NCBI GenBank assembly: GCA_010015805.1
Contig: ML978146.1
Span: 104,831 to 168,830, forward strand
Direction of reading: 5' to 3'
DNA length: 64,000 bases
From: Rhizodiscina lignyota
Taxonomy: Eukaryota; Ascomycota; Dothideomycetes; Aulographales; Rhizodiscinaceae
Both the position numbers and the translations under genes were made by a program. Positions within the stretch are counted from its first letter, which is position 1. The number at the start of each line of letters is the position of its first letter. A model generated the notes under the pieces. That model searched no databases, was not told where the DNA came from, and worked only from the letters and a program-made list of their open reading frames with translations. Positions 10,860-31,225 of this stretch are shown piece after piece.

Positions 10860-13800
10860 CTACATATCGCCAAAGTATTGCGTTCCAAACATGTAGCTGA
10901 GATCCCCACCTTCCTGTCCGCTGAACATATTCTCCCATTCAGCCCAGTCAATGTTCGGCGTCGGCCCGCCGCCGGGCACGATCAGGTCGGCCTGCGACGT
11001 CTGCCCGAGAGATGGCGCGGCGCCGATGGATGTCGCGACCGATTGTGCGCGAGCTTCTTCGGACGGACCGGGTATGCGTCCTTCCAAGATGGCAATGCCT
11101 CGCTCCCGTTGGGCTGCTAGTCGTGCCTGACGTTCCGACTCGTCCTCACCCTCGGCAAATCCAATCTGCCTTGAAGCTCGCTCTTTGGCGCGCTCCAACA
11201 CTTCCTCTCTTGTGAATAGAACGTCTGGATCAACATTGGCCTTCGTCCAAGCGCGTGCCCTTAGTCGCCAGATGAGCTCCCACGCTTCGTGGCCGCCTTC
11301 TGTCAACGGGCGCCCAAGCAGCTTGGATCCGTCGAAATATGTGATGCCGCTGCCGTCGGGGTCACAGAGCGCCATTGCTTCGTCGACTATTTCTCGTGCA
11401 TCTCTCGATCCTGGGCCGTATGGGTCCTTATCAACCTCTCGAATGAGGATCATGATCGCGTGGAGCGGCTGGTATTTACCCGGCCAGGCCCACTGGAAGG
11501 GGCGGAAATCAATGTCGACTGCCAGATATATGAATTTCATTATATATGATCTGCTATAGTCGATGATGCTACGAAGAGGTCAGCAAAATGTCACGCACAA
11601 AAGAATAAGATCGGAGCTCGACTTTACGAACCTTGGACGCAAGTCAGCCCACATGGAGCTGATAGTTGAATGCTCAAGTGGAATATACAAGAGACCCCAG
11701 CTCCTTGCGTACATCGCAGACAGCGATAAGCGAGTCCACTTGTTGAGGGCAGGGTTGGTAGCATGTGTTGCCATTGTTGGGCCTACATCTCCACCGTATC
11801 TGCCGGAAGATTGGGAAATGCGTCTGATGCGCGAGAATAGGTCTGATCGTAATTGTTCCATTGCGATTCTAATATCAGCGACATCACTACGGGTCATAGG
11901 CTTCTGCTGGAATAACTTGGAGAGAAAGTACTTGATGGCAACTATTCAAAGTTAGTAAAGCACAATGATCTGGACGGAAATAACGCTAGCCCACCCATTG
12001 TTCGATATTTTCCCCAAGCAAAGATTGCACACGTAGACACAAGCGAAGACTGATTCGGATCTTCAGGGGAGTCGACAGACATTGCCGGACGCGTCCCAGC
12101 TGCGACGTCTCTCTCGTACTCCACAGCCTCTGCAGTGCCGATGAAGTGATCTTTAACCTCGCTGATGGGTTTTACATCCCATGAGGCGTCGTCGATGAGC
12201 GGCGGCAGACCAGCAGACATTGCTATGCTGACATCGTGAAAGTACACGAGCCACCACAAGCGGCGACGTGACTCGATGGCGACAGGGCTAAGGAGTGGAA
12301 AGCAGGAAGGATCTTTGTTGAGCCCAAGCATCTGCGAGATTCGCACCGCCACTCCCATGAAGGAGCAGCAAACCAAGGGCTCCTCCTCTGCAGTATTGCA
12401 ATATGGATTAGCATGTGTGCAGAGGCCAATTAGTGAATCCTGACGAACCTCTGAACCATACAGTCTGAGCAATCATATATGCTGTCAGCGACTCGACCGA
12501 AGGTGTTCTTGCAAAGCTCGCCTGTCTCAGCGCTTTCGTGGTCTGCTTATACAGCTCACGAGATATCTCTGATCGAGGTCTGCCGCTGAAATATTCATCC
12601 ATTCCTGAAGTAGGACCGATCACGGAGCCAGCAAAGAGAACTGCATAGAGGAGCGATATATATGGAGGACTAGCCTGGACTCTCTCTCGCTCTGCCGCCC
12701 ACAGAGACTCATACTCCTCGAGGAACGTAGGGACGTGCAGAGCTGGGGCGACGGCTTGATAATTTTTCATAAACGTCTCCACGAGATAGTCACATTGTGG
12801 CTTCCTCGGAAGCAGAGACAAGTCGACAAGCAGTGGCTTCTGGCGCTTGGAAGTGCTCGGAACTTTGTAAAGTTCATCTACGGGCGGCTGAGGAAAGTAG
12901 TCACCCGCATATTCGCTCACTGTTGGCATCCGGAACGGAATCGTAGTCGTAGACCCAAGCCCTGGTGGCCCAGATCTAGAGCTAGTTGCTGAACCGGATC
13001 CAGGAGACTCTGCAGTGTCGCTGGCAGTGGGTGTTGGAATATCATATCTGTTCTGGCTGCGGAGCAGCTCATCCAGTTTTGAAGCCTGAGAGGCGTGTCA
13101 ATCTCGGCCGCTTGCACACGTGATTGAGGGGGGATTACCTCGTCGCAAATGGAAGCCCAGAAGTAGTTGCCCACATACTTGGTCCTGCCGCCGCTCTGGA
13201 TGTTCAAGTGCCCGTTCTCCGTGTCGGTTTCGACAGGAGCCTCGTCCCCAGTTTGCCTCGCGCGTTTCGGTATCGGAAGCGCCGCTGCAGCGGGAATGTC
13301 AACTATTTGAAAATCAGAGCCTGTGATAAGAGAGTGCGGCCGACGAACCTTCGGACGGCCGACTGGATGCCTCGCTTGAGGACTGGCCTGCTCATAGACA
13401 TGAATGACTAATCGTCAATGGAAAATGGCTCAATGGCATACGCATTGCCTGCACTAGCCCGGTAAGACTCTCAAGGCGAGCCTCAATCGCTCGGAGCCGC
13501 TCCGGAGATGCATGCTGCTCGATCGCAGACGATGCTGTGCTCCGCGACGAAGACCCTGCCGCGGTGGCTACGGCGCTGGACGAGGTCCCGCTACTAGGTG
13601 CATCGCCATACACGCACTACAGATGGTCAGAAGAGAGAGAATTGATTAAGGAATTCGAACATACCTGAATATTGAAGTTCCTGCAAGAGGAGCATGCTGG
13701 CCGAGCCTGGAGAAAGCCGGGAGATCAGCGAGAGACGCTCGGCTTACGTCGGGACATGTCAGAGGCTGCTGCTGAATCATACCATATCGCATTTAACCTT

Positions 13801-13866
13801 CCGCGCGCGACATTCTTGACACGTATTTACCTCGCGCGGACGGCGAATCCGAGGCCTTTCACTCAT
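10860..13866 (-). CDS. Zn2Cys6 transcription factor with fungal-specific middle homology region
   Basis: Nine exons: 13866..13783, 13706..13665, 13616..13442, 13387..13349, 13302..13139, 13085..12449, 12387..11995, 11941..11632, 11568..10860, giving 850 residues with every phase consistent. The binuclear zinc cluster is split over the first three exons: Cys16, 19, 26, 33, 36, 43 (C-x2-C-x6-C-x6-C-x2-C-x6-C). A short heptad-like linker (ERLRAIEARLESLTGLVQAM) suggests dimerisation. The middle homology domain spans roughly residues 290-560, with PLHVPTFLEEYESLW-type and RISQMLGL and ESRRRLWWLVYFHD motifs. It is nuclear and probably regulates the adjacent divergent dehydrogenase and the rest of the block; its own promoter holds three CGGCCG sites. 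Target genes are inferred from position and motif only. Confidence 0.9.
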
Positions 13867-14370
13867 TGTCGCGACGTCGAACGCGTCTTCACGTGACCAG
13901 GCGGCGGCCGAGAGCTGAAGGTAGACGAGAACACAAGAACACGGCCGTGAGAAGGCGCCGTGACACCAAGACGCTCGACTCGGCTGAAAAAGACAATCTC
14001 GTACGGTGCGGCCGCGACAAGTGCTGTTCTGGGTAAACTCACATCGAGGGTGGACTGTGGGGAGGACTCGGCCGATAAATACACCACAGCGACCAGGGCC
14101 ACAGGGGGCGTGATGACTAACCTTCGTGCTTCGTTTACAGCTGTGCATCGCAAACCTTGGCGATCTGTTGCTCATCCTTCAGTCTCTGCTCCACTTCAGT
14201 CCAGTCGCAAGCACCGTGGCGGGCATACATGGTGGGCAAGAGAAGAAGAGAAGTGTTGGCTGGGGAGGATATAACAGCCGAAAGGGGGCCCATGTTCCAT
14301 GAGATGGATCAACGGCCGCAGCCCTGCCCTCCGACATCACCAAAGATTACGCTTCGCAGAAACTTGCACA
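13867..14370. promoter_or_regulatory. Divergent regulator/dehydrogenase promoter with three CGGCCG sites
   Basis: The 504-bp space between the start codons of the Zn2Cys6 factor (minus) and the HAD-type dehydrogenase (plus). CGGCCG occurs at 13905-13910, 14009-14014 and 14069-14074, the last within TCGGCCGA. CGG followed directly by CCG is the kind of inverted triplet pair Zn2Cys6 dimers bind, so autoregulation together with the dehydrogenase is a reasonable inference. Confidence 0.55.
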
Positions 14371-15379: not shown

Positions 15380-16105
15380 GCTTTAGCAATAGAACATCAG
15401 ATAGAGTTTGGTGCAATTGCAACTATCGTATGAATTGTTCTCATATATTGTCCAATCCACAGTTATGCGGTCTTCGTCGTTCATTGGACTATGCTCTCGT
15501 CTGTTGAGACAGAGTACAACACACTAATTTCTCGGCATGGAATTCCCAGTAACTGCAACAGTCGCGTACATCTCGAGCTGCGTCTAATGCCATTTTGACG
15601 ATATCATCCCAACGCAATTCTGCGAGGTGTTTGGCGAGGTTCTCGTGTTCACGGCGAATCCGCAAGACTGATCGTGATCCCATTCAGCTGTTCAACGATC
15701 TCCACTGCATGAAGAAGCTTCCCCGCGTGATTTGCATCGTTCTCGGTGTTGTTATCGTCCGGGATATCTTGTGTTGGAAAATGCGACAATACAGGTCCAC
15801 TTTGGCGATGCTCGCCACTCGGCCGAGTGATGCCCTGGGATGTCGAAGTTCGAACCACCATCACGGTTTCACGCGTCGTGCCCAGGAGCATCATTTTCAA
15901 GGTGATGACAAAGCCAATGTCATGCAGCCAACAATGAAGGTCGCCGTGGATACCGAATTAAGGCGGCCGAGGTGTTGTCTTTGTTTTGATCAGAAATCAA
16001 GAAATAAATTGAATGAACTGCACATTTGTAGTTGGGTCATCAACATTTTGCGATATTTGGTTCTCTCTCCACGCTGAAAAGACTTGAAAGTTCAATTGAG
16101 AAATA
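15380..16105. promoter_or_regulatory. CoA-transferase upstream region with 12-bp palindrome ACTCGGCCGAGT
   Basis: 726 bp between the dehydrogenase stop and the CoA-transferase start. It contains the perfect 12-bp palindrome ACTCGGCCGAGT at 15817-15828 and a second core, GCGGCCGAGG, around 15963-15972, about 290 and 140 bp before the start codon. No gene is evident here. Confidence 0.55.
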
Positions 16106-17921
16106 ATGTCTTCGCCTTACGGTTCGGGAACTGTTGTTGATACTTCTTTCACACCAGTACCGCAAGAATGTCGTCGTATCTTGCACGAGCTTGCCACGAA
16201 GACGCCTGGATTCACGCAGGACGAGGCATTGCTCGATGGAGTTGACTTTGTCGGCCATGACCTTCCTTGCATTCCAGGTCCCATCAAGTCTGTTGCATTC
16301 ACCGCAGTGCTCCATGCTATGGCTGGGATCATTGGACACGAGATTCTGGAACTTCGAGGAATCAAGACGAACAAGAAGACGTCCATCAACACCGACCAGG
16401 CTGGCTTATATTTGGCGAGTCCTTGTACGGTCAGCATTGATGGCGCCGATGGCCCTGACGCGCTGAAGGCTCCAAACATTCTCGACCTGAGTGGTGGTGC
16501 GGTGAATAGTCCTCTTGTGCTTCGTTCTCAGGCAATCTATCCAACAAAGACGCCGAACGTCTGGTTTCAGGTACGCAGTACAGTCACTGTCTTTGCCAGA
16601 CGACGGTACAGAAATGTTTACATTTCCGCAGCTGCATGGATCGACGAATCCTTGGCCGGTATTGGCAACAATGGGTGTCGATCCCCACGCTCCAGTCAAG
16701 ACGGGAGATGAAGGATACGAAATAATCAAGAACCAAATGATCAAATACACGGCGAGGGACCTTGAAATGATTATGATGGAGCACGGCTTCGCTGGATCCA
16801 TCGTCTATTCGCCCGAGGATTGGCTGAAAATCCGCCCTGCGCAGATCCTGGCACTGCATCCACTGATCAACTACAACAAGGTGCCCTTGAGCAGTGGCAT
16901 GCCAGCACCAGCTTTCACCGGAACCTCTGCAGATGACAAGCGCCCACTCGCTGGGACCAAGGTCCTTGAGCTCGCCCGCATCATTGCCGCTCCAGCCTGT
17001 GGAATGACGCTTGCTGCAATGGGTGCCGAAGTCGTTCGTGTGCAGACGGACAAGCTGGTGGACTTTGTGGTGAGTAAATCTCGCAAATACTTGCCTCAGA
17101 ATTGGCCGCTGACAAACCTGTAGCCTGCTCAACTCAGCTTGATGGCCGGCAAAGCGGCTTACAAACTTGATATTAACGACGAAGAAGACAAGAAAATACT
17201 CATGGATCTCATGTCAGAAGCCGATGTCATCATCCAAGGATACCGCCTCAGGTCTCTGGAGCGCAGAGGCTTCGGCCTCGATGTATGCCTCGAGATGGCC
17301 GCCAAGCGTGGTAAGGGTATTGTTTACCTCGATGAGAACTGTTACGGCCCCGACGGATACTATGCCGAGAGACCAGGATGGCAGCAGGTCGCGGATGCTT
17401 GTGCCGGAAGCTCATATGTCATGGGAAAGGCCTTCGGTTACCCAGAAGGTCAAGGAATCTTGCCGTCGCTGCCAATCAGCGACATGTCCACGGGTATCAT
17501 GTCCGCGGTGACAATTTTGTCCATGGTAAGAGATCGCGCCAGGTATGGAGGCAGCTGGCATGGAACTGCAAGCTTGGCTGCGTACAATGCAATGACCCTC
17601 CAACCGTGGATCGGCTTGTACCAACCGGGAATCGTCTCAAAGATCCAGGACCGGTTCGACTTTAAGGTTTGGGGAAGCGATATCCACGTCATTGAGCTGT
17701 ACTACGCGATTTATTACGCCTGGAAGAATTCTGGAAAGAAGAGTGGTGACTTGATCAGAAACGAGGACCTGTTCGTTCATTTCAACAACAGTGCTTTCGG
17801 CAAGGATCTCCGCATTCTTGCACCCATCGTCAGGTATGACGATAAGGCCTCGTCGCCGCACTGGACAAATCCGCCTGTTCCCTTTTGCTGGCACAAAGGT
17901 CCAAAGTGGGGTGGTATTTAA
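16106..17921 (+). CDS. Class III (CaiB/BaiF-type) CoA-transferase
   Basis: Exons 16106..16570, 16632..17069, 17124..17921, 566 residues. The first intron (61 nt) joins VWFQ to LHGSTNPW, restoring the conserved lead-in of the family. The protein has the duplicated architecture of fungal CaiB/BaiF enzymes. The C-terminal part starts PLAGTKVLELARIIAAPACG with GAEVVRV and LSLMAGK, then DVIIQGYR. The motif PISDMSTGIM places Asp at about 421 where formyl-CoA transferase has its catalytic Asp in GDSNTG. It would move CoA between acids without ATP; in bacteria the family acts on carnitine, formate/oxalate and bile-acid esters. There is no PTS1 signal at the C-terminus (GGI). Context between a HAD-type dehydrogenase and oxidases suggests activation of a carboxylic acid made by the cluster. 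Confidence 0.9.
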
Positions 17922-18962
17922 TGAGTGAGGACAGCCATGGAGTTGCAACTTGGAAATAGATTGCTGACTATTCCACTCATTTGACGTGTCGCTTCTGCGT
18001 GCAATGAGGATTCTTCCGTCAATAGTAATGCAAATTGAAATGTGTCAAGTTACGCTCCAGGAATTATGTTGGGCTGTGAATCATGCATCGTTTGTCCCAG
18101 GTGAAGAACCGTTTGACCGCACAAACTGTGTTGAGATTCTTAGGGCTTCCAATATATCGCGTGTAGAGATTAGAGTCCCGTGTGGGACTTAAGCAGAAGC
18201 GTCGCATATTTACTATTCAGAAGATCCTGCGGTCCAACTGTCGGCGGGAATTGACGCTGCCACCCAACCATCTTAGGACTCGCCGCTTCATCTTGACATC
18301 GCAGCGTATTGTGGGATAGTGTTCCTTAGGTTCTGATTACTGATTGAACAGGTGCAAAGGGTTGGTTGAAGGCTCGAGTTCGTTGCATTGCAACGAGTCT
18401 GTCCTCACTAGAAAATCTCGCGGGTCCTCGCGGGCCTTGGCATTGGAAAGGGTTAGGGTTTAGGTTATAAGGATGGCCAAACATTATTTCAGGCCGAGCT
18501 GAATTCTGGTCAAACCATCACCGAACACGCTCTACGATCAAATTATAAAGATATTTGTGTTGAGAGGAGAAATATAGATGCCCTATTCCATATACTTTTT
18601 GGTCAGACAGACCAGGGATATGTATGCTTCCCATCTACAACAAACGCTACCTCGCCAGGTGGGTGACAAAATAGTTGAGTCCTATGAAGTTTGAACGAGT
18701 TCAGCAAAAGGGAAGCTTCCTCTTCAACGCTAGCGAGAGTATCTCTAAAAGGTCGATGAATTATATACTAGAGTCCGTTTATCTAAAATAAGTAGCTTCA
18801 GCGTGCACAACTTATATTAACTATCAAGGATATACAACCTCGTAGTTCTATGTATTGCAGCCACGAGTCAACCATTTTATCACCCTCGTGCTCACCAAGT
18901 CCATTAATAAGGACCCAACCGAGAGAGACCAAGAAGATGCCGACCGATATATATATATCGAA
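17922..18962. other. Convergent intergenic stretch, no gene seen
   Basis: About 1.0 kb of AT-rich sequence between the 3' ends of the CoA-transferase and the FAD oxidoreductase. It has a short telomere-like string (GGGTTAGGGTTTAGG near 18450) but no coding potential and no CGGCCG. Confidence 0.4.
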
Positions 18963-20337
18963 CTATTCCGAGGACGCCCCTTCGCTGAACTTGACGCCGA
19001 ACATGCCCCACACTCGTCGAATGTCCATGTCTTCGCTGACACGGTTAAAAGGCACCAAAATCTCCTTCCTGCCGCCATCTGTGATATAAATTACGCCCTC
19101 AGCCTTGAGACACCAATACGTCAGCCGCAGGAAAAGATCAAGTTAATTACGCGGGATGAAATTACCTTTCCTAAAGTCAACTTCGTCGCACCCTCAAGCT
19201 CCCGATTTGATACATATTTCTCTAGTTTGTTCGGCTTCCCCTGGATGAGCTTGACTATGTTACTAGCGACTACTGCAGCCTGCATATGACCAGCGCGGCC
19301 CATCTTGGGAGCCCCAGTCTCGGCAACATCCCCAACAGCGAAGACGTGAGGCGCTTCGTCTCCGAGATTTTCAAGTCGAAGGTTTGGGTCGACGAGGATG
19401 CGTTTGGTTTCCTTTGACACGGACTGCGGCGACCAATCCATGATGAGCCCGGAATTTGGAGTCTGGCCCGTGCACCGGATCTTGAACGACATTCAGTCAA
19501 CTATCCAACTTGCGGCACGGGAGAACTTACGATCAAATCGTAGCTGGAAGTCTGACCGTCTCCGAACCTCAGCTCTCCAGATCCTGGAGCGACAATTTGC
19601 GGCCGCTCGCCCAGAATGACTTTTATGTTTTGCTTCCTGATGGCGCCTAAAGCATATGATTGCAGTCGCGGGCCAAATTGGGGCAAGATGTGATCTCTTG
19701 AGTTGATCAAGGTAACATCCTTCTCCGGACGAAAGCTCTTTATATCGGTGGCCATCTCAATGCCAACAGCTCCACCGCCAACAACAGCAATCGAGTTAGC
19801 ATTCTGAATGTTTTCTTGAGCAGTCTGTAGTTCTTTACACGCCTCTTCTTTATGTGTCGCCGACAGTTTCGCGGGCGGGAGCTGCGATGTTCCCGTTGCG
19901 ATGGTCAGGTACTCGTACGGCAATTCTTCCCCAGATGCCAGGATCACTGAATCGTCTGAGATTCTAACCACCTCGTCTTGGACAAGTTGAAATATGCCCT
20001 TGGGCGCATTTCGAGCGATGCCACTGTAAGGAATGAAGGCGCCCTTTTCGTATCCGGAAACCACACTGAAACGAGGAAATGCGAAAACGTAGTGCAGGTG
20101 CGAATTCTTTTCCACCAGGACGACTCGGTAGCCTGTTGGAAGGCTCTCACATAGTCTCTTTGCGAGTTCGAAACCTGCAAACGATCCTCCTACAATGACC
20201 ACGTTCTTTGGTGATGGTATTGCCTTGTATGTCCAACGGTGGTACGACGCTTGGATCCGCTCGATGATGATTCGGCCGAGGAATGGGATCGCAACTCTGA
20301 AAATCTCGACGAAGAGCTTGATTTTATCTGGAAGCAT
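18963..20337 (-). CDS. AMID/AIF-like FAD- and NAD(P)H-dependent oxidoreductase
   Basis: Exons 20337..19531, 19480..19166, 19103..18963, about 420 residues. Two dinucleotide folds are evident: NVVIVGGSFAGFELAKRL for FAD and IAVVGGGAVGIEMATDI for NAD(P)H. The closing FAD motif VFAVGDVAETGAPKMGRAGH binds the flavin. This is the pattern of AIFM2/AMID-type, single-subunit, NDH2-like quinone or small-molecule reductases. A short hydrophobic N-terminal segment (VEIFRVAIPFLGRIIIERI) may attach it to a membrane. The start at 20337 is preferred; the frame is open to 20472, but the extra 45 residues look like 5' UTR. The last acceptor is ambiguous between 19103 and 19097, a two-residue difference. It sits inside the oxidative block, and a TTCGGCCGAG string lies in its first exon (20271-20280). 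Confidence 0.85.
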
Positions 20338-20952
20338 ATTGAAAAGAGTTCTAATCTCATAGAGAATCGAAATCAGCTTTACAAACTGAAAAAAATGAAA
20401 AGAGAGAGAATCAGAAAGTTTATGATCTGATAAGATTAACTCCGCGAAGCCGTGGAGCCGTGGAGCGTCCATGAACGAAATGTCTGTCTGTCTCTCCGAT
20501 GTCGGAGCAACACGAATCGCAAGGGACTTTCGGATCCCCGGAGACTTGAGTTACCGGACTACTAAGTAGGCTTTACGCAGTACAATAGGATTTCTCCTAT
20601 TTTATAACACTTCTTCGGCATCTTGGCTACAATTCTAATGACATATAAAAGGAAACAAACGAATGAATGAAGTAGGGAAAAGTATGCCACGGGGAGGGTT
20701 GGTGGTTTTATAGACGATCGATGGCGACAGGGGTATCCATCGAGGCGCTTTACCCGAAATGTGAGGCACCTTCATTATTCTTCGGAAAATACGATGGACG
20801 TACATTACAGTCACGCTTTATGAGTTTTCAAGAATCGTTTCTGACCTTGCAAATTTCTATATACGCTTCTTCTGCACATTAGAAACTGGACGAAGAACTT
20901 GCAGCGAGTTACGTACAGATGACGTGACAGCGACGCGTGAACTCAGCAGCCT
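20338..20952. other. Intergenic, FAD oxidoreductase upstream region
   Basis: 615 bp between two minus-strand genes. It holds the 3' end of the dehydrogenase-propeller gene and the promoter of the FAD oxidoreductase. No CGGCCG and no further gene seen. Confidence 0.4.
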
Positions 20953-22803
20953 TTAGACGTACGCGAGTGTGATGCCAGCATAAGCGCCTTCTCCATCATA
21001 GATTTTCTTCCTATTGCTACCATCCATGTCAAACCTATAGACTGTACCTCCCAGATCAGTCAGGTAAATGTGCTGGTTCTTCTCATCCAGCTTCAGTCCA
21101 ATCGCTTCGTGCAGGTTCCGTGCAATGATGTCGTAATCCTTGCTAGGCATGCTAACCGTCTTTCCTTCGACAGGCTTTAGCTTGCTAATTGCGACCTTGT
21201 TCAGGCTGTTGCCAAGCGGTAGCTCGCCTCTATCCGTCCAGAAAAGGGTGTTGGTGTGCTCGTCGATCTCCAAGTCGATTGGCTCTGGCAGGCCTTGGAA
21301 GAGACACTCGATGTCTGTGCGCGTTGACGCATCCTGGCCGCTCGGGATGTCGATGCCAGCGCGGAAAATACGGCCTTGAGATCCCTTTGATGGGCCCTTT
21401 TGAGTCCAGTAGAACTTGCCGCTCTCCGGAGAAACAGCGATACCGACGCACCACTTGGTCTGGTCGGTGGCATCCTTCTCATCCTGCCAATCGCCAGTGC
21501 AGATAATGGTTTCTAGGTTCGAGCCGTCCAGATCGCATCGCATAACGCGCAAGCCTTCACGGTCGGAGAAGTAGAGCTTCTGGTTGACCTGGTCAAGGTA
21601 GGTCTGCTTCGGCGTGTGGGTGGCACCCTTTGGAACAATCTCCTTCACGTCGCTGCCGTCCAGGTTGCAAGAACGGATGGAGCCGTCGTTCTTACTCGGT
21701 ATCCCCATGCTTGTCCACAAGAGCTTGCCAGCGGGCAGAGAAATTGCAATACCATCGGGGAAGTGCTCGTTCTCGACAAGTGTTTGCGGCTTGCGCCCGT
21801 CTGGTGCACCGACCAAAATGCGTCCCTTGCTGAACACTTCCTGGGGGACGTTGGCAAGACCAATGTCGAGGAAATAGAGTACCGGAGCGTGGAGGTCATC
21901 GTGATGACTTTTGGGCTCCCCAGCTGCCTTGGTAGTATAACCGGGTGGGTAAAGACCGCCTTTGCTTGACTTGGCTCCAAGCCTGCCCTCGTCCAGATAC
22001 TTCTTCAGGAAGTCGACAGTCTTCTCTCCGGACAAGCCGCGCTCCGTCATGTAATGCTGCTCAATGAAGGATACCGTGTCCAGACCGACTGCGTCCATCA
22101 TAGCACACGGCCCAGCACGCCCGTTGGAGAACATCTCGATCCAGACAGAGTCGAGTTCGGGCGGCACAGACACACCTTCCGACAAGATGGTCAACGTCTC
22201 TCGCTTGATTGCGGCCCAGAGTCGATTGATCACAAAACCGGTGGATTCCTTCCGGGCAACTACAGGGTGCATGCCAACTTCCGTCAGGCGATTAGACAGG
22301 AATTGGAATATCTCTGGTTCTGTTTGACCGTCTGTCATCAACTCGACGATGCGGTTTTCCGGCGGCATCATGTAGTGCATGTTGCAGATGCGCTCCGCCG
22401 TGGCCGGGCCGACTTTCTCCAGCATCTCTCGAGACTTGTAGCTTGACGAGTTTGTGCACAGAATGGCATCCTTCGGTGCGACTTTCTCGAGGTCTGCGAA
22501 TGTGCTGATCTTGAGTGGGAGCTTCTCCGGAACACACTCGATGATCAGCCAGGCATTCTCAACTGCAGTCTCCAAATCTTCAAACGCTTTGACGGCCCCG
22601 TACTTGGCGTCTTCGGACTTGAGGAACTTTGCGATGCTCGTCTCGAAGTAATGGACAGCCCCTGTGCGCTGCTCGGCGCTGGGATCTCGAACTCGAACAT
22701 CATAGCCACCTGCAGCCCACACGCAAGCAATGCGGCGGCCCAGCACGCCTCCTCCCAGGACAACGACAGGACGACCTTCGTACGAGGGTACTTTGAATGT
22801 CAT
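20953..22803 (-). CDS. 3-hydroxyacyl-CoA dehydrogenase fused to a YWTD-type beta-propeller
   Basis: A single exon of 616 residues. Residues 1-300 form a complete HAD-family dehydrogenase: Rossmann motif VVVLGGGVLGRRIACVW, NSSSY, catalytic-His region NMHYMMPPENRIVEL, and the C-terminal helical domain starting ESTGFVINRLWAAIKRE. From about 315 to the end the sequence changes to LDL-receptor class-B/SMP-30-like propeller repeats: NLDGSD, LYFSDREGLRVMRCDLDGSN, FYWTQKG, LFWTDRGEL, IYLTDLGGTVYRFDMDGSN. There is no signal peptide or membrane segment, so the propeller is intracellular. The propeller may hold a substrate-binding or lactonase-like role, which is inference. Neighbours are the FAD oxidoreductase downstream and a P450 upstream on the same strand, with a promoter rich in CGGCCG. 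Fusion is uninterrupted in one frame, so it is not an assembly artefact of splicing. Confidence 0.9.
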   Translation of the reverse strand: MTFKVPSYEGRPVVVLGGGVLGRRIACVWAAGGYDVRVRDPSAEQRTGAVHYFETSIAKFLKSEDAKYGAVKAFEDLETAVENAWLIIECVPEKLPLKISTFADLEKVAPKDAILCTNSSSYKSREMLEKVGPATAERICNMHYMMPPENRIVELMTDGQTEPEIFQFLSNRLTEVGMHPVVARKESTGFVINRLWAAIKRETLTILSEGVSVPPELDSVWIEMFSNGRAGPCAMMDAVGLDTVSFIEQHYMTERGLSGEKTVDFLKKYLDEGRLGAKSSKGGLYPPGYTTKAAGEPKSHHDDLHAPVLYFLDIGLANVPQEVFSKGRILVGAPDGRKPQTLVENEHFPDGIAISLPAGKLLWTSMGIPSKNDGSIRSCNLDGSDVKEIVPKGATHTPKQTYLDQVNQKLYFSDREGLRVMRCDLDGSNLETIICTGDWQDEKDATDQTKWCVGIAVSPESGKFYWTQKGPSKGSQGRIFRAGIDIPSGQDASTRTDIECLFQGLPEPIDLEIDEHTNTLFWTDRGELPLGNSLNKVAISKLKPVEGKTVSMPSKDYDIIARNLHEAIGLKLDEKNQHIYLTDLGGTVYRFDMDGSNRKKIYDGEGAYAGITLAYV

Positions 22804-23602
22804 GTTTGAAACGGTTAGTTGGACAAGAGGAATTGAGACGAGTTGCGAGGCGGATTGGAGGGAGAGAAGTAGCAGAACGGACGGATTCTTGTTACCCTAA
22901 ACCTCGTACCCATAATGCTTCACCGGCGCACTGCAGGAAAGCTATCAATGCCTGGAAATCGGCCGGTTCAGCCGATGTTGATGCCACACCCACCGCATCT
23001 CGAGGGGGAGTTGGATTGACGCTGTGTACGGGCTTAGTAACTGCTGACAAGTCGCGCAGCGGCCGCGAGAGTCGGCCGGCGACCAGGAAACCATTGCCCC
23101 GGAGATGCTCGCGACGGCATTCTGCATACGCGACGCGTGCCTTGGTGTTTCGCGTTAGATTTTGCGAGGCGGAGAGATGGGTGAAGCTGCTCCTGACGCG
23201 ATGTCTGCTCTCCTGCAAATCAGTGCATCTCGGCCGGGTGCGCTAGCCCCGATTCGGCCGAGCGGCCGCCGGGGAAACCTCCTTAACGTCGCAACATCTT
23301 TCAGCACCTCTATGTCTCTGCCTTCTCGGACGAGCGACGGCAGACGGTGGGCCTTGTTGATCGCGGCAGAAGACGGCGAAACCGGTGAGTGGCCTGTTGA
23401 CGGTGACATGCTCCAGCGCCATCCTTGCTGGTCCACCTTGTGCGGGAGTCGAAGAGAGGCTCTGTGCACTCCATCTTCACTGTTGGGCAATGTAGTGTCA
23501 CGTCGAAATGTTGGCACAGCCATGTTCGTATTCCATCATTGCATATTCGACATGTTCTAACAATTTACGCCTATAGAGGAGTACATAATCAATTTGTGGC
23601 CC
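22804..23602. promoter_or_regulatory. Upstream region of the dehydrogenase-propeller gene with six CGGCCG sites
   Basis: 799 bp between the P450 stop (23603) and the propeller-fusion start. CGGCCG occurs at 22960, 23060, 23073, 23231, 23255 and 23263; the 23255 copy is TTCGGCCGAG and the last two are 8 bp apart. This is the densest group in the window. The stretch also has some open frames, but they owe their length to GC content. Confidence 0.6.
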
Positions 23603-25440
23603 TTACTCAGCTGCCTTCGACTTCTCTGGCCACTCCGTCCTGCGCTTCGCTCGAACGTACAGGTTCATTGGCCGGATGAGCTGGAACATGGGATCGTACT
23701 CGACCGGATCCTCGCTGGCCTTCTCCCACTTGTAGCGGTAGATCAGCTTCGGCAGGAACGTCTTTACCTCAGTCAGCGCAAAGTTGAAGCCAATGCACAT
23801 GCGGCCTCCGTGTGCGAAAGGAATGTAGGCACATTTGTGTCGCTGCTTCGTCTCGTCGCGGTCCCAGCGGTCTGGGTCGAACTTGTGAGGATTATTCCAG
23901 ATCTCGGGGTTGTTGTGGATGTGGTGAAGGGCGATAATCATCACAGCCTCTGCCGGGATTTTGTAACCTCCAGGCAAGATGCAGTCAACCCTGGCAGTGC
24001 GTCCGGGCTGGTACGAAGGGTTGTGTAGCCTTTGCACTTCCTTGACGAAATTTTCCTGGAAATGAAGTTCAGCCACCTCGTCAATGCCCCACTCGGTGTT
24101 CTCATCGATCCCGTGGTCAATGTACTCCTGTAGCAAGCGCTCCTGCATCTCTGGATATGTAACGCAGCAGTAAAGAAGCCAGGAGAGAAGACTGGAGGTC
24201 GTGGCGAAACCAGCCCCAATGACCACGGCCAGGATAGGGACAACGTTCTCCTTAGGGACCTTGTTGCCTTGAGTGTCAACAGCACGCTGGACATAGTCGA
24301 CAATGCAGGATGCTTGGAGAGCAGCATCCTGGAGTGGAAGGTCTCCAGTGCTGGACGCCTTGACCTCGGAGGCAGAAGCCATGATAAGCTCTGCAAGTCG
24401 CTTCTGAGTCTCACGCAGCTTTGCAGGGTCGCCAAATGGCAGGTGAGAGTACCAGTCACCACGTGAAACAACTTTCTTGTTCAGCACGAGGCCATCCGCC
24501 ACAGTCTTTACAAGCGGATGAATTGCAGCATCGGTGCCGTCGAAATGGTGCAGGTTCAAATTCAGTGCAAATTTGCCAATGGCTTGCGAGCCGAGCTTCA
24601 ACATGTACGGGTAGACGTTGAAAGCCTCTCCGCGCTCATCGAATTCGTCAAACACCGTAAAGGCCTCTCTGATGGTATCGTAGAAGAGAGGGGTGTAGTG
24701 ACGAATGGCCTTGGGCGTAAAAGCCGGAGTAATAAATTTGTGGGTGATCTTCCACTCCGGCGCGTCCGAGTCCGCAATGAAGAGACCAGCTTCATTATGC
24801 TTGATGCCGTAAAGGGGATGGTCTTTGTTGATCTTCTTGGTGAAAAATGGCGACTCTTCAAAAGCAATTGCAGCAATCGCCGGGTCATTCGTCAGGTACG
24901 TGGTTCTGCCCATGTCCGTGGTCTTGATGACCGGACCGTATGTTTCGAACATTCGCTGATGGTTTCCCAAGTGCTGCCACCCATGAGACAACGCACTCCA
25001 AGCACATTCAAAGCAACTCACATCCGGAAAGACTTCGTAGAATGATCCCACGAAGGGTAAGCCTTCAGGCCCTGGCGGCACTCTGATCGTATGTTTGTCG
25101 ATTGTGACTCCTCTGTGATTGGGATTCTCAGCGGTTTCCATAACTTCTGCTGTTAAGGCGAAGCCTCACATTGCATCTTTGCTTTCCGCAATGTCGTCAA
25201 TGTCATCAAGTGTGTTGTGTCCCGCATCTTCAAATGCGATGCCTGAACTCGATTAGCTTCATTCCGGCATGTCAAGGACTGAGTCCAAGTAGCGTATTCA
25301 GATATACCTGATGGCGTTACAATGGCAAATGCAGCTCCGACTGCATCTTGAAGCGCGCTGAGATCTTGCAGAGAAGCAACGTCAAGCTCAATTGCTGCCG
25401 CTGTCTCATCCCCAATAAGGTGGAAGGTTTTGACTGCCAT
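23603..25440 (-). CDS. Cytochrome P450 with an N-terminal ubiquitin-like-sized domain instead of a membrane anchor
   Basis: Exons 25440..25308, 25242..25170, 25112..25022, 24973..23603, 555 residues. The frame from 25141 is open, but true coding starts at 25440. The first about 80 residues (FHLIGDETAAAIELDV, then AVGAAFAIVTPSGIAFEDAG in parts) form a small folded leader, followed by DKHTIRVPPGPEGLPFVGS. The in-frame 48-nt segment 25021..24974 (GTGAGT...GGCAG) is an intron, since removing it joins FPD to HLGNHQRMFETYG. P450 hallmarks are ExxR (EVQR, about 411-414), the DPDRW segment and heme loop FAHGGRMCIGFNFAL with Cys at about 492. The I-helix reads AGFATT, with Ala in place of the acid. 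No hydrophobic anchor is visible, so it may be soluble. It is head-to-head with a cytochrome b5/b5-reductase fusion, its likely electron donor. Confidence 0.88.
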
Positions 25441-25982
25441 TGCTCTCGAACAGTTTCTCGAGTTGAATGATTACAGAGGAAATAGCAGATTCCAATGATG
25501 GTGATTCAATTTCGAAGCAAGTCAAACGCAATATGTTGAACGCAGAGCAGGGTAGTTGTCAATGCTCCGAAATGCAAGACTGCTTATCTGCGAGCTTGTT
25601 CATTGAATTATGCACAACAGCATTTGCCTCGCTCTGCCAAGCTATCAAGTCATACCACTCACGAGTTATTTGTGGGGAAAGAAGTCGCTTATTCAGAAGA
25701 GGCGGATATCCGGCCGAGATGCAGGCAACACGACGAGCCTGTTCGCTTCTGATACCCTGCATTTCCACCAACTCTGCTGTGTAATGTTAGGGTTGGCGGC
25801 AGATGAGCATTGAAATCGTAGCATGTGCTCGGGTGCACAGTGATTTTCTGGAGCTCCTTGTTGGCGTGTCGACCGAATCATCAACAGTCGATCACAAATC
25901 TCTCTCCTCTCCGAAACTTTCTTCCATTCTCTTACAATCCATCTCTTGCACTGCCAATTGACTGTTGTACAGTTGCCAAACA
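25441..25982. promoter_or_regulatory. Bidirectional promoter of P450 and b5/b5-reductase fusion
   Basis: 542 bp between the two divergent start codons. One CGGCCG lies at 25711-25716 within ATATCCGGCCGAGAT, near the middle. A shared promoter would co-express the oxygenase and its reductase. Confidence 0.5.
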
Positions 25983-27566
25983 ATGGAGGACGCTAAAGCT
26001 TATAGCCTTTCTGAGGTTTCGACTCACAAGTCCAGGACGGACGTTTGGATTGCCATCCACGGTAAAGGTACGTGAGTCGAAAACATTTCCTCGTCCTGTA
26101 CGGAATGTCCATTGAGAGTCTACGCGTATTTTTATGACGAGTGCTGCACCATCTGGAAGCCGTGCGTGCCTTTGTGGCATCAACGTGCTGACGAATGTTC
26201 GCAGTGTACAATGTCTCCAAATACCTTGACGAGCACCCCGGCGGCATTGACGCGATTATGGAGGTCGCCGGCTCCGACGCAACAACCACTTTCGAAGACG
26301 TCGGTCACTCGGAAGACGCTAGAGAGGTTATGGAGCAGTATTTCGTTGGCACTGTAGAGGGGCATGTTCCCACTGCTCCAGCGGTCCGAGGGCCTGCTCC
26401 ACCTGCCGCTGCGACTGTTGCTCTCGCTGCCCCAGCTGCAAATGCTTCCTCGTCCACCCCAGCGTCCAAACCAACGCACAGCCCAATGACACTGCTCATC
26501 CTCGGGGTCCCGGCTGCGGCGATTCTGGGTTACCAGCTTCTCGTTCGGATGCCTGGTGGTCACTCTGTGTCTGGCCATGGCCACGGTCATTCAGGAGGAT
26601 TCTGGACGGGCTTCTTGATTTCCAGCACGCTTGGAACGTTCGTCCTCGCGACCGCCATCATCCGCCTGGAGAAGGCATTCAGCATCTCTCGCGACATTGG
26701 CTCTTTCCCAACTCACATCACCCCGACGAACCCGGTCACTGTCCAAGTGACGACGAACAAGGGCGTGTTGAATCCCAAGGAGTACCAGCGCTTCCCCTTG
26801 GCAAGAAAGGAGATGATGAGTCCTAACGTATGTCTGTTTGTGTTCCGCCTGCCGACTCCACGCTCTATTCTTGGTCTACCCATTGGTCAGCACATCGCCA
26901 TACGTGCCACTGTCAACGGGAAACAGATAAGTCGATCGTACACGCCAGTGAGCAACAACACGGATAAAGGAGAGCTGCGTAAGTTTACCACGATACTTAT
27001 GCACCACAGTGGCTGCTAACAGAAAATCAGGACTCGCAATCAAACTCTACTCCAATGGCCAGCTCACAGGCGGTTACCTTGCGAACCTCCAAATCGGCGA
27101 CGAAGTCGAGTTCCGCGGGCCTAAAGGCACAATGCGCTACCGCAAGGGACACTTCAAGCAGCTCGGCATGATTTGCGGCGGTACAGGCATCACGCCCATG
27201 TTCCAGCTCATCCGCGCCATCTGCGAAGATCCCGCCGATGATACAAACATCAGTCTCCTCTTCGCCAACGCGACCGAGAACGACATCATCATGCGCGACA
27301 TGTTGGAGGAGTGGCGGGCTAAAAACCCGAAGCAGTTCAAGGTGTGGTACAAGCTTGACCACCCGCCGGAAGGGTGGACTTATGGAAAAGGGTATATTGC
27401 GAAGGATGATATTTTGACGAGGTTGCCTCCGCCAGCGGCGGGTACGCAGATCCTACTATGTGGGCCGCCAGGCATGGTGAAGGGTGCCTCGAAGAGTTTG
27501 CTCGAGCTGGGTTATGAGAAGCCGAATGCTGTGTCAAAGGCGGCGGATCAGGTCTTCTTGTTCTAA
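25983..27566 (+). CDS. Cytochrome b5 - NADH-cytochrome b5 reductase fusion protein
   Basis: Exons 25983..26067, 26205..26978, 27031..27566, 464 residues. Residues 1-80 are a cytochrome b5 domain with both axial heme ligands, His39 in the HPGG motif and His63 in DVGHSEDA. A Pro/Ala-rich linker follows, then two hydrophobic segments (MTLLILGVPAAAILGYQLLV and a second near FWTGFLISSTLGTFVLATAII, shown in part) separated by a His/Gly-rich loop. The C-terminal half is a ferredoxin-reductase fold: FAD motif RSYTPVS, GQHIAIR, NADH site GGTGITPMFQLIRAI and CGPPGM. It would pass electrons from NADH through FAD to heme on a membrane such as the ER. The divergent P450 is the obvious acceptor; fatty-acid modifying enzymes are the alternative. 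The 137-nt first intron is longer than its neighbours. Confidence 0.92.
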
Positions 27567-28019
27567 AGTAGTTGCTGTGAGGGTTGCGTTGTCAGCGTGT
27601 CGCGCGAGAGAACCGCCTTTCGCCGAGGGTGGAGAAGACTCCGCTCTTCTCCGCTCCCAATCGAATAATGTATCATCTCTGTGGCGTAGCCTGAAAAATC
27701 TCTTCGTAAAATTAATTTGTTATCCCTCTTGGATTTGGAGTACACGATGGTCAGGTTTAAAATCCTTCCCGCAATTCTTTTTATATGGCCGAGAGAATGC
27801 ACGTCGGCGGCCGCAACTGCGTGAACCGTCAGCTTACGTTGCCTCGAACTTCGGGCAGTCGGCGACAGCATTGTACATACCCACTAGGGAAATAATCAAA
27901 TACATTGCTCTGGGATTTACTATGTTTCAATAAAGTCTGTCGTGTTTGAAACCAATGCTCGATCATGAGGTTTGGATCAGCATTTCTTTCTTTAATCCGC
28001 CCTCGCCGGTCCCTTGTAC
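27567..28019. promoter_or_regulatory. GMC oxidoreductase upstream region with one CGGCCG
   Basis: 453 bp between two same-strand genes, holding the 3' end of the reductase fusion and the promoter of the GMC gene. CGGCCG is at 27808-27813, with a nearby TGGCCGAGAG at about 27786. Confidence 0.45.
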
Positions 28020-29978
28020 ATGCCGATGGACGCCGAGCACTTTCTCAACCATTACTTTGATTTCCTCATCATCGGCGGCGGTACAGCTGGTTTGACTCTC
28101 GCAAGCCGCCTTTCAGAACTGGACGATGTCGTCGTTGGCGTTATCGAAGCGGGTTGTGATCGAAAGGACGACCTCTCCGTTGACGCACCGGGACTTTTCA
28201 TGACGCTCTTTGAACAAGATAAATATGACTGGCAGTTCCAGACGGTCCAGCAGGTACAAATCATGTTATTGCCTACATCCGAGCGCATGAATTGATCAAG
28301 CAGCGCAGAAATTAGCCGACGGCCGCGTCCATGGCTGGGCACGAGGTAAAGGACTCGGCGGCAGCTCTGCCCTTAACACCATGATGTGGAGCCATCCATC
28401 GCGCCGCGATCTCGACAATTGGGTAACACTTGGGAACGAAGGCTGGGGCTGGGATGACCTGACACCATATTTTCGAAAGACAGAGGCATTCCACCTTCCG
28501 GATCTCTCGGTGTATGAGAGTCACTATCTCCAGCCTGACCTGCACGGTACGAATGGCCCTGTTCAAGTGTGTCTTCCGCAACAGGGTGGTTCTTGGGTGG
28601 CAAAGATGTGGCCGGATACGGTGAAAGCTCTGGGGTATCCAAAGGCGACGGATCCTCGGTCTGGTTCGGCGCTGGGTGGATTCAATCAGTTGGTTAGCGT
28701 TGATCCGAAGACAAGCACGAGGAGCTACGCCGTGTCTGCATATTACGCTCCGGTTTCCGGGAGGCCGAATCTTCATGTTATCACAGATGCGATTGTGACG
28801 AGGATTCTTTTTGCTCAGCAGCTTGGTGAAGAAGATATCGTGGCAGACGGAGTGGAATTTATCGTTGGTAGGAACAAGTACACTGCGCGAAGCAAAAACG
28901 TTATAGTCTGTGCTGGTTCGGTACAATCTCCCCAGGTCCTCGAACTATCAGGCATTGGCAATCCAGAAATCCTCGCCAAAGCTAAAATAGAGACGAAGAT
29001 CCCGAACGTGAATGTGGGCGAAAACCTACAGGATCACCTCTTCATGGCAATAGGATGGGAAGTCGCCGACGGTGTAGAGACATTCGAGTCTCTTCGTGAT
29101 CCAGCAATGATCGAAGCCATGGTGAAAGAGTATGCAGAGAGTAGGACGGGAGTGCTAGCGACTTCCGTCACAAGCACTGCGTTCGTCTCGTATGCAGGGC
29201 TTGGTTCGTTCTCGACACATGAAGAGCTGGAGAAGAATGTCCATGAGACGGCGGCAGAGCCTGCTCAAGGAACCCAGCTACCCCAGGCGCAGCTCGATCT
29301 CATTTCAGCTCAGCTTGCTGATCCCACGCAGGCAGCGGTGCAGGTTGTTCTTTGGTCCTGCACACTGGCAGATTCAATTAACTGATTTCTACACAGGTCG
29401 TCCCAATGCCCGCAGGTGCGGATATGAGCAAGTCGAACACGTCTGGCGGTATCACAAAACATTCCTGGCCCGGTGCATACGTGACCATTGGTATTGCAAC
29501 GACCCGCCCGTTTTCTCGAGGGAGCGTGCATATCAGCTCGCCGTCTGCATCTGATAAGCCGCGAATTGATCCGGAATATCTCTCGCATCCAATGGACGTA
29601 GAGGTCTTGGCTCGAGCAGGCATGCATGTGCAGCAGTATGCCGACACAGAGCCGTTCGCCTCGTACTTGAAGGATGATGGTAAAGGTGGGAAGGCCCTGA
29701 TGCCGGGAACGCGAAAGTTTGACAGCTTGGATGACGCCAAGGAGCATGCAAGGACGAACAGTGCGACGGAGTATCATCCGATTGGTACTTGTTCAATGTT
29801 GCCGCGAAAGGATGGCGGTGTCGTTGGAACCGATTTGAGGGTTTATGGGACAGCAAATGTGCGGGTTTGTGACGCCAGTATCTTCCCATTGCATGTGCAG
29901 GGTAATATTCAGAGCCTGGTATACGCGGTTGTGGAGAAGGCGGCTGAGATGATCAAGAAAGAAATAACTCCTTCTTAG
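28020..29978 (+). CDS. GMC-family FAD oxidoreductase (alcohol oxidase/dehydrogenase type)
   Basis: Exons 28020..28253, 28309..29343, 29397..29978, 616 residues. The N-terminal ADP-binding motif DFLIIGGGTAGLTLASRL and the GMC signature 1 region GKGLGGSSALNTMMW are intact across the first splice site. Signature 2 reads GSVQSPQVLELSGIG. The C-terminal catalytic region has HPIGTCSM, with the His that removes the alcohol proton, and HVQGNIQSLVYAVVEKAAEM. It would oxidise an alcohol to an aldehyde with FAD, passing electrons to oxygen or another acceptor. There is no signal peptide, so it acts inside the cell, unlike secreted aryl-alcohol oxidases. Two ATGs (28020, 28026) are possible starts, a two-residue difference. 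It closes the oxidative block and would follow the P450 logically. Confidence 0.92.
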
Positions 29979-30176
29979 GCCGGCGTTTTGAGCTGCCCAT
30001 GAGAACTCTGATGGTGTTGTCCTCGTGAATGGATGATCGATTCGTCAAGCTGGATCTGTCGGTGCTGCATTTCATTGTACCTCTTGAGGCAGTCTGAAAT
30101 GAAATGACTGCATGTAGGCTACCGGCGTAGTTGGGTACATAACCACCGGTGGCTTTGTCTGTCGCGTCTTCAATCC
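29979..30176. other. Short convergent spacer
   Basis: 198 bp between the stop codons of the GMC gene and the Arl3-type GTPase. It marks the edge between the accessory block and the housekeeping genes. Nothing further seen. Confidence 0.4.
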
Positions 30177-30913: not shown

Positions 30914-31225
30914 CTTGTTGTAGTATGCAGCGACCTCTGCGATGCTGTACTGTCTTTGAAGATTATATGTTGCTCATTGGCGGTGAATTCAACATTCATA
31001 TGTCCAAGATGCTGCAATAGTCTCCCGTATATTCAGCCTTACGACGTCACTACCGTAAACAACCTGGAGCTTGGAACGCGCCAGAGCTCGCATCTCTTCC
31101 TTCCATCTCTTCCTTCCCACATAAATATTACGCCTTCACTGCTACGCGTTCGTAGAAGCTGGAGATCACCGCCATGCTCGTACACCAAAGGTGACAGAAC
31201 GACCTTTACCACAGCCTCACACACC
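30914..31225. promoter_or_regulatory. Bidirectional housekeeping promoter
   Basis: 312 bp between the divergent start codons of the GTPase and the membrane protein. No accessory-cluster hexamer is present. Confidence 0.4.

What the first reader, a model, noticed from the sequence alone, without database searches (positions are those of the whole stretch)
10860..29978. Candidate undescribed oxidative-to-CoA catabolic gene cluster
Eight adjacent genes make functional sense together: a Zn2Cys6 regulator, a HAD-type dehydrogenase, a class III CoA-transferase, an AMID-type flavoprotein, a HAD/YWTD-propeller fusion, an anchorless P450, a cytochrome b5/b5-reductase fusion and a GMC oxidase. Seen directly: the domains, order and strands. 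From family knowledge: P450, alcohol oxidase, CoA-transferase and 3-hydroxyacyl-CoA dehydrogenase can be chained into hydroxylation, oxidation, activation and beta-type dehydrogenation. Inference: the block degrades one substrate class and is co-regulated. There is no polyketide synthase, peptide synthetase or terpene cyclase, so it looks catabolic rather than biosynthetic. I know of no published cluster with this set, but could not search.
Basis: partly seen in the sequence, partly recalled or inferred. Interest (0 to 1): 0.86.

Follow-up and report, generated by a model that had tools for sequence, protein, structure and literature searches.

The report
Co-regulated fungal catabolic gene cluster
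In a wood-dwelling fungus, eight neighbouring genes for oxidising and CoA-tagging some unknown compound look like one degradation cluster, because most of their control regions share the same DNA word; parts of the cluster have been reported in other fungi, the whole set apparently not.

Summary
The eight genes are there, in the stated order and strands, in Rhizodiscina lignyota. The P450 model needed correcting: four exons, 555 aa, a conserved soluble N-terminal extension, no anchor seen. New evidence supports co-regulation. The zero-spaced inverted repeat CGGCCG occurs 15 times in 3.5 kb of cluster promoters (0.86 expected; 0 of 3000 shuffles), in 5 of 6 promoter regions, and in 1 of 8 control promoters. 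The AMID promoter lacks it. 'Undescribed' is half right: a P450 / b5-b5-reductase / hydroxyacyl-CoA dehydrogenase trio with similar expression is published in Zymoseptoria tritici, and a dehydrogenase / CoA-transferase III pair lies in the Fusarium FDB2 cluster. The chemistry is open: HAD1 is lambda-crystallin-like, and no acyl-CoA dehydrogenase, enoyl-CoA hydratase or thiolase match lies on the contig. Conservation of the whole set was not shown. Best reading: a substrate-induced oxidative-to-CoA catabolic cluster built from two known modules; substrate unknown. New variant of a known kind.

The parts
10860..13866 (-). REG: Zn2Cys6 + Fungal_trans regulator, 8 exons, 849 aa (third intron uncertain)
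   Evidence: model; Pfam PF00172, PF04082
14371..15379 (+). HAD1: lambda-crystallin-like 3HCDH-family dehydrogenase, exons 14371-14631 and 14681-15379, 319 aa
   Evidence: Pfam; nearest solved chain lambda-crystallin
16106..17922 (+). COAT: class III CoA-transferase, 3 exons, 566 aa
   Evidence: 100% to public R. lignyota protein P0121; Asp421 kept
18963..20472 (-). AMID: FSP1/AIFM2-like flavoprotein, 3 exons, 465 aa; doubtful member (no CGGCCG in its promoter; one copy at 20273 inside its coding region)
20953..22803 (-). HADY: 3-hydroxyacyl-CoA dehydrogenase fused to a YWTD beta-propeller, 616 aa, single exon
23603..25440 (-). CYPb: P450, 4 exons (25440-25308, 25242-25170, 25112-25022, 24973-23603), 555 aa, soluble N-terminal extension, no acidic residue in the I-helix AGxxTT stretch
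25983..27567 (+). B5R: cytochrome b5 / NADH-cytochrome b5 reductase fusion, 3 exons, 464 aa, two hydrophobic segments
28020..29979 (+). GMC oxidoreductase, 3 exons, 616 aa; FAD-domain match begins at residue 13 (no signal-peptide prediction was run)
13867..14370 (.). REG/HAD1 divergent promoter, CGGCCG at 13905, 13942, 14009, 14069, 14313
15380..16105 (.). COAT promoter, CGGCCG at 15820 (inside the palindrome CTCGGCCGAG) and 15964
22804..23602 (.). HADY promoter, CGGCCG at 22960, 23060, 23073, 23231, 23255, 23263
25441..25982 (.). CYPb/B5R divergent promoter, CGGCCG at 25711, 271 and 272 bp from the two start codons
27568..28019 (.). GMC promoter, CGGCCG at 27808

Best explanation
A substrate-induced catabolic gene cluster that joins two modules under one regulator. 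Shown by sequence: the genes, their enzyme families, and a shared CGGCCG word in the promoters of REG/HAD1, COAT, HADY, CYPb/B5R and GMC. Inferred: REG, or another Zn2Cys6 factor, binds the CGG inverted repeat and switches the genes on together. B5R passes electrons from NADH to the divergently transcribed P450 CYPb, which hydroxylates a hydrophobic substrate. GMC oxidises an alcohol group. COAT moves CoA onto the resulting acid. HADY oxidises a 3-hydroxyacyl-CoA, and HAD1 oxidises a free or CoA-bound hydroxy acid. General beta-oxidation enzymes encoded elsewhere finish the job. AMID may be a bystander. The substrate is unknown; a plant- or wood-derived compound is my guess from the habitat (recalled) and from the two published precedents.
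For: All eight gene models and domains. CGGCCG 15 times in 3,503 bp against 0.86 expected; first of the 240 hexamers seen at least 4 times, and still p = 2.6e-9 without the richest promoter; 0 of 3000 dinucleotide shuffles reach 15, and 0 of 3000 put it in 5 or more promoters. The longer word CGGCCGAG is found 618 + 647 times in the 33.4-Mb genome, so 0.13 would be expected in these promoters; 8 are there, 7 if one palindrome counts once. CoA-transferase nucleophile position kept in at least 118 of 120 listed relatives. In Z. tritici a CBR-b5 fusion gene has an expression profile similar to that of a neighbouring CYP and a neighbouring hydroxyacyl-CoA dehydrogenase (PMC4557397, passages). 3HCDH next to CoA-transferase III in the Fusarium FDB2 cluster, the latter strongly induced by benzoxazolinone (PMC10512309, passages). 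HAD1, COAT, HADY and B5R relatives elsewhere in the own genome do not lie side by side: the closest two of different kind are about 36 kb apart, a b5-domain match and a weak CoA-transferase match on C7.
Against: The motif was found by looking at these same promoters, and no expression data exist here. When any CGG/CCG pair at any spacing is allowed, some pair reached 5 of 6 simulated promoters in 12 of 500 simulations, so presence alone is less striking than the count. AMID has no site upstream. In three top-120 listings no contig length is shared between HADY, COAT and CYPb relatives; in X. bjoerkii the CYPb and COAT relatives are on contigs of different length. In Fusarium the 3HCDH gene FVEG_12628 was not induced while its neighbour was. 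No acyl-CoA dehydrogenase, enoyl-CoA hydratase or thiolase match on the contig. Deleting ZtCBR2 or ZtCYP-24 gave no clear phenotype. COAT has Gln where the solved CoA-transferases shown have a second conserved Asp.
Confidence: 0.55

Rival explanations
1. Two independent neighbours: a HAD1-COAT module with its own regulator, and a HADY-CYPb-B5R(-GMC) module, side by side by chance or merely in a region rich in specialised metabolism, without a common substrate.
For: Each half has a separate published precedent. No shared contig length between relatives of the two halves in the listings, but the same test also shows none for HADY with CYPb, gene types published as neighbours in Z. tritici, so it has little power. 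AMID, without a site upstream, lies between the halves. Another P450 and an amino-acid permease lie just upstream.
Against: The CGGCCG word is enriched in both halves: 7 sites in the two promoters on the left, 8 in three promoters on the right; 1 of 8 control promoters has it.
Confidence: 0.25
2. A tailoring or detoxification cluster rather than one that feeds carbon: the enzymes modify a toxic plant or microbial compound, as FDB2 does, or finish a product made elsewhere.
For: A COAT relative sits in the FDB2 detoxification cluster. Source names from biosynthetic clusters (that they are such is recalled) appear among relatives: nodX in 1 of 120 COAT rows, alnD in 5 of 120 CYPb rows. Beta-oxidation enzymes are lacking on the contig.
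Against: No synthase, amidase, lactamase or N-acyltransferase domain among the eight genes; two dehydrogenases plus a CoA-transferase fit carbon use as well.
Confidence: 0.15
3. The promoter word reflects another factor or local composition, and the genes are not co-regulated.
For: CGGCCG was picked after the fact; HADY's region is fairly G+C-rich (0.56) and holds 6 of 15 sites. One of 34 other loci of the genome, L016, is also fairly rich (1.60 per kb).
Against: The seven other G+C-only palindromic hexamers occur 0 or 1 time each in the same promoters and shuffles never exceed 5; the result survives dropping any promoter.
Confidence: 0.05

Closest known systems
Zymoseptoria tritici ZtCBR2 / ZtCYP-24 / hydroxyacyl-CoA dehydrogenase putative three-gene cluster (PMC4557397; passages seen)
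   Same: Same three gene types as neighbours, including the b5-CBR fusion; [quoted passage not shown]
   Different: Three genes described; no CoA-transferase, GMC, regulator or promoter site in the passages seen; orthology to the genes here not tested (no Z. tritici among the names shown)
Fusarium verticillioides FDB2 benzoxazolinone cluster (PMC10512309, PMC4726666; passages seen)
   Same: Adjacent 3-hydroxyacyl-CoA dehydrogenase (FVEG_12628) and CoA-transferase family III (FVEG_12629) with a fungal transcription factor in the cluster; the CoA-transferase relative P0141 (FVER53590_12629) is 57% identical to COAT
   Different: FDB2 has NAT1, a metallo-beta-lactamase, an amide hydrolase and an AMP-binding enzyme; no P450, b5R or GMC in the table rows seen for FVEG_12625-12642
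Lambda-crystallin / L-gulonate 3-dehydrogenase family (function recalled)
   Same: Best solved match of HAD1, residues 6-313 of 319
   Different: Substrate not known; HAD1 is below the cut-off of all 19 NCBIfam models it matches
Class III CoA-transferases (formyl-CoA transferase, SUGCT, CaiB)
   Same: CoA_transf_3 domain and the Asp of the DxxxG stretch
   Different: 566 aa with about 260 N-terminal residues that match no Pfam model; Gln388 where the solved chains shown have Asp

Membership tests
Co-regulated fungal metabolic gene cluster | Adjacent, functionally compatible genes with a pathway-type regulator | tested here: met
Co-regulated fungal metabolic gene cluster | Shared candidate regulatory site in member promoters, not in neighbours | tested here: met
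   5 of 6 promoter regions; 7 of 8 control promoters have none; AMID not met; two copies in the gap left of the regulator
Co-regulated fungal metabolic gene cluster | Co-expression across conditions | not testable with these tools
   no expression data held
Co-regulated fungal metabolic gene cluster | Conserved linkage in other genomes | tested here: inconclusive
   no shared contig length among 3 x 120 listed relatives, only a fraction of the 1184, 455 and 771 hits; two sub-modules linked in print
Z. tritici CBR2 three-gene cluster | b5-CBR fusion, CYP and hydroxyacyl-CoA dehydrogenase side by side | tested here: met
   20953-27567; arrangement in Z. tritici from the paper's text
Z. tritici CBR2 three-gene cluster | Orthologous proteins | not tested
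   no Z. tritici sequence was compared
FDB2 benzoxazolinone cluster | Signature NAT1 N-malonyltransferase gene | tested here: not met
   no such domain among the eight genes
Class III CoA-transferase | Catalytic Asp (Asp169 of formyl-CoA transferase; residue and role recalled) | tested here: met
   Asp421 aligned with Asp in the five solved chains shown and kept in at least 118 of 120
Alpha-methylacyl-CoA racemase | Active-site Asp in the RPG-x-D stretch (role recalled) | tested here: not met
   Gln388 in 120 of 120; the five solved transferases shown also have Asp there
3-hydroxyacyl-CoA dehydrogenase (HAD1) | Closer to acyl-CoA enzymes than to hydroxy-acid enzymes | tested here: inconclusive
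   best solved match lambda-crystallin 145.6 bits against 90.8 for 3-hydroxybutyryl-CoA dehydrogenase; NCBIfam best PRK06129, named 3-hydroxyacyl-CoA dehydrogenase, then L-carnitine dehydrogenase, both under cut-off
Canonical monooxygenase P450 | Acid residue before the I-helix Thr (recalled) | tested here: not met
   Ala356 here; Thr 118, Val 1, Ile 1 in 120 relatives; heme Cys and ExxR are present

The most novel reading that the evidence does not exclude
An undescribed fungal catabolic regulon in which a single Zn2Cys6 factor, acting through a zero-spaced CGG inverted repeat (CGGCCG), joins a P450 with its own NADH-driven b5/b5-reductase to a CoA-transferase and two dehydrogenases, forming a self-sufficient 'hydroxylate, oxidise, activate' unit. 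Its P450 belongs to a family that lacks the usual I-helix acid and carries a conserved soluble N-terminal extension instead of a membrane anchor.
Probability: 0.35. Interest if true: 0.6.

Novelty: new variant of a known kind. Interest (0 to 1): 0.42.

Why it matters
Fungal catabolic clusters are, to my knowledge, far less catalogued than biosynthetic ones. A cluster with its own regulator, a testable operator word and a P450 paired with its own b5/b5-reductase gives a direct way to find the substrate. It could also help give a function to the Z. tritici trio, whose CBR2 and CYP-24 knock-outs showed no clear phenotype, and tests whether such P450s work without the general P450 reductase.

Tried and rejected
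A home-made gene finder failed twice, first with too many introns and then with missed genes; models were built by hand from splice sites, frames and, for the P450, homologues. Pfam on unspliced stretches failed. Calling COAT dead because the RPGYD Asp is Gln was considered and dropped: that position is, by recall, the racemase Asp, while the transferase Asp is kept; but the solved transferases shown have Asp there too, so the Gln remains unexplained. FarA/FarB (CCTCGG, recalled) and XlnR (GGCTAA, recalled) words were counted and are not enriched (2 against 1.45; 0 against 0.88). CGG/CCG pairs with other spacings reached at most 4 of 6 promoters, which 130 of 500 simulations also reached. A second place with two of these gene types was looked for with four of the eight proteins (HAD1, COAT, HADY, B5R) and none was found closer than about 36 kb; CYPb gave 79 further, distant P450 matches; REG, AMID and GMC were not searched. 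A carnitine pathway is not supported: the L-carnitine dehydrogenase and L-carnitine CoA-transferase models match under their cut-offs. A limonene cluster in Grosmannia, recalled, could not be checked: that paper was not among the 15 listed of 1,114. CYP540 was searched in papers (listings only); nothing ties CYPb to that family. The statement that the whole set is not in print rests on listings: 15 of 146 listed; 4 of 4; 10 of 75, which brought PMC4557397; 0 papers with 5 of its 6 terms. The held library lacks most subscription papers.
Full report
What is there. The window is bases 104,831-168,830 of contig C26 (168,830 bases) in a 33.4-Mb, 29-contig genome. My spliced CoA-transferase model is identical over its full length to a public protein of Rhizodiscina lignyota on a contig of that length, so the source is this Dothideomycete of the order Aulographales. 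Hand-built gene models and Pfam confirm the eight genes between 10860 and 29979. In the flanks, of ten reading frames scanned, eight matched: upstream a fungal rhodopsin domain, an amino-acid permease (two frames) and another P450 (two frames); downstream an Arf-family GTPase, Utp14 and, further off, an aldehyde dehydrogenase; the frames at 5139-5453 and 30833-32971 matched nothing.

Corrections to the models. The P450 is not a 512-aa single-exon gene. Its 120 listed relatives are mostly about 550 aa, and an upstream ATG at 25440 with three introns gives 555 aa that align with them. The first 75 or so residues are a soluble stretch conserved in the family: 110 of 120 relatives have residues at query columns 10 and 30, and 2 of 120 have a strongly hydrophobic segment in their first 95 residues. 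'Anchorless' therefore stands, for a better reason. The residue before the conserved I-helix threonine pair is Ala here and Thr, Val or Ile in the 120 relatives, Asp or Glu in none of them; the heme-binding Cys and ExxR are present. The HAD-propeller fusion is not special to this locus: at least 1184 proteins matched, and the 120 listed are 551-662 aa long with both 3HCDH domains, those with a name coming from many Pezizomycotina. A profile of 39 sequences of this family matches the YWTD propellers of LRP chains, and its dehydrogenase half matches 3-hydroxybutyryl-CoA dehydrogenases.

Enzyme identities. COAT keeps the Asp of the DxxxG stretch that aligns with Asp in the five solved class III chains shown, in at least 118 of 120 relatives. 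A second Asp position, recalled as the racemase Asp, is Gln in 120 of 120; the solved transferases shown have Asp there too, so this speaks against a racemase but is also a departure from known transferases. HAD1 matches lambda-crystallin best among solved structures (145.6 bits), then a pyridine-carboxylate dehydrogenase (137), and 3-hydroxybutyryl-CoA dehydrogenase at 90.8 bits. Its 19 NCBIfam matches are all below cut-off, the best being a model named 3-hydroxyacyl-CoA dehydrogenase, so whether it acts on free or CoA-bound acids is open. AMID is closest to ferroptosis suppressor protein 1. GMC's best solved matches are a chain named 'glucose oxidase, putative' and, further down, aryl-alcohol oxidases. 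B5R has two hydrophobic segments between its b5 and reductase parts. No enoyl-CoA hydratase (ECH_1), Thiolase_N or Acyl-CoA_dh_1 match lies on contig C26, so a full beta-oxidation turn does not seem to be encoded here.

Co-regulation. I compared six promoter regions (3,503 bp). A look for shared words led to CGGCCG: three 8-base words around it occur in 4 of 6 promoters, against 0.02 such words per simulation. This palindrome, a CGG inverted repeat with no spacer, occurs 15 times: 5 in REG/HAD1, 2 in COAT, 0 in AMID, 6 in HADY, 1 in CYPb/B5R and 1 in GMC. A first-order Markov model expects 0.86 (Poisson p = 3.5e-14). It ranks first of the 240 hexamers seen at least 4 times. None of 3000 dinucleotide shuffles reached 15 (maximum 5), and none had it in 5 or more promoters. 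Dropping any one promoter leaves p at or below 2.9e-9. The rest of the window has 14 (9.9 expected), the cluster's gene bodies 6 (3.9 expected), and 7 of 8 control promoters have none. In 34 other loci of the genome (128 kb) the density is 0.305 per kb, highest 1.60 in L016, against 4.28 per kb in the cluster promoters. The longer word CGGCCGAG occurs 618 + 647 times genome-wide, its reversed control 500 + 510 times, so 0.13 is expected in these promoters; 8 are there, 7 if the palindrome at 15818-15827 counts once. Against this: the word was chosen after seeing these promoters, the gene starts are my own models, and when every CGG/CCG pair and spacing is allowed, some pair reached 5 of 6 promoters in 12 of 500 simulations. 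The count, not the mere presence, carries the case. Five sites lie between the regulator and HAD1, as expected if REG controls itself and its neighbours. AMID has no site upstream of its start, only one inside its coding region (20273); two more sites (9503, 9753) lie in the gap left of the regulator.

Precedents. In Zymoseptoria tritici the b5-CBR fusion gene ZtCBR2, a neighbouring CYP (ZtCYP-24) and a neighbouring hydroxyacyl-CoA dehydrogenase have similar expression profiles (ZtCBR2 significantly up only in one medium) and were proposed as a putative three-gene cluster, perhaps degrading a plant compound. Deletion of ZtCBR2 or ZtCYP-24 gave no clear phenotype (PMC4557397, passages). HADY, CYPb and B5R here are the same three gene types side by side; orthology was not tested. 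In Fusarium verticillioides the FDB2 cluster lists FVEG_12628 (3-hydroxyacyl-CoA dehydrogenase, not induced) next to FVEG_12629 (CoA-transferase family III, log2 fold change 10.3 on benzoxazolinone) (PMC10512309, passages). The Fusarium protein FVER53590_12629 is 57% identical to COAT.

Conservation of the whole set. I could not read neighbourhoods in other fungal genomes. Among the 120 listed relatives each of HADY, COAT and CYPb no contig length is shared (longest contig per row; two P450 rows have none). In Xylographa bjoerkii the CYPb relative (MMC18_001159) and the COAT relative (MMC18_007152) are on contigs of different length. These lists are the best 120 of 1184, 455 and 771 hits, and they also miss any HADY-CYPb linkage, a pair of gene types published as neighbours in Z. 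tritici, so this is weak evidence against wide conservation. In the own genome, relatives of HAD1, COAT, HADY and B5R do not lie side by side elsewhere; REG, AMID and GMC were not searched.

Verdict. A real, probably co-regulated catabolic cluster assembled from two known kinds of module; substrate and reaction order unproved. New variant of a known kind, of moderate interest.

Noticed in passing
window 49644-51611 (-), promoter 51612-52211: An aldehyde dehydrogenase (Pfam match for residues 200-650 of 655) has CGGCCG at 51891 and 52053 upstream; it is the only one of 8 control promoters with the word and may belong to the same regulon.
   Followed up: partly
window 7462-9351 (+) and 5139-6982 (+), coordinates approximate: A second P450 and an AA_permease_2 transporter lie just upstream of the cluster; their promoters hold no CGGCCG.
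   Followed up: partly
window 25440-25090 (-): The CYPb family carries a conserved soluble N-terminal stretch of about 75 residues with no Pfam name, in place of the usual membrane anchor; fold unknown because structure prediction was off.
   Followed up: partly
L027 (G000:C6:1088472-1089440): A reading frame 52% identical to the propeller half of HADY alone; the two halves of the fusion may exist apart in this genome.
   Followed up: no
window 16106-16946: The first 260 residues of the 566-aa fungal CoA-transferase match no Pfam model though many columns are conserved in 120 relatives.
   Followed up: no
P0047: A Cladobotryum relative of HADY is named LAM1 by its source; the word LAM1 occurs 0 times in the ten papers listed, so the origin of the name was not found.
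   Followed up: partly
PMC4557397, section 3.2: The paper gives the same accession for ZtCBR2 and for its neighbouring hydroxyacyl-CoA dehydrogenase, so one of the two is a misprint and orthology checks need care.
   Followed up: no
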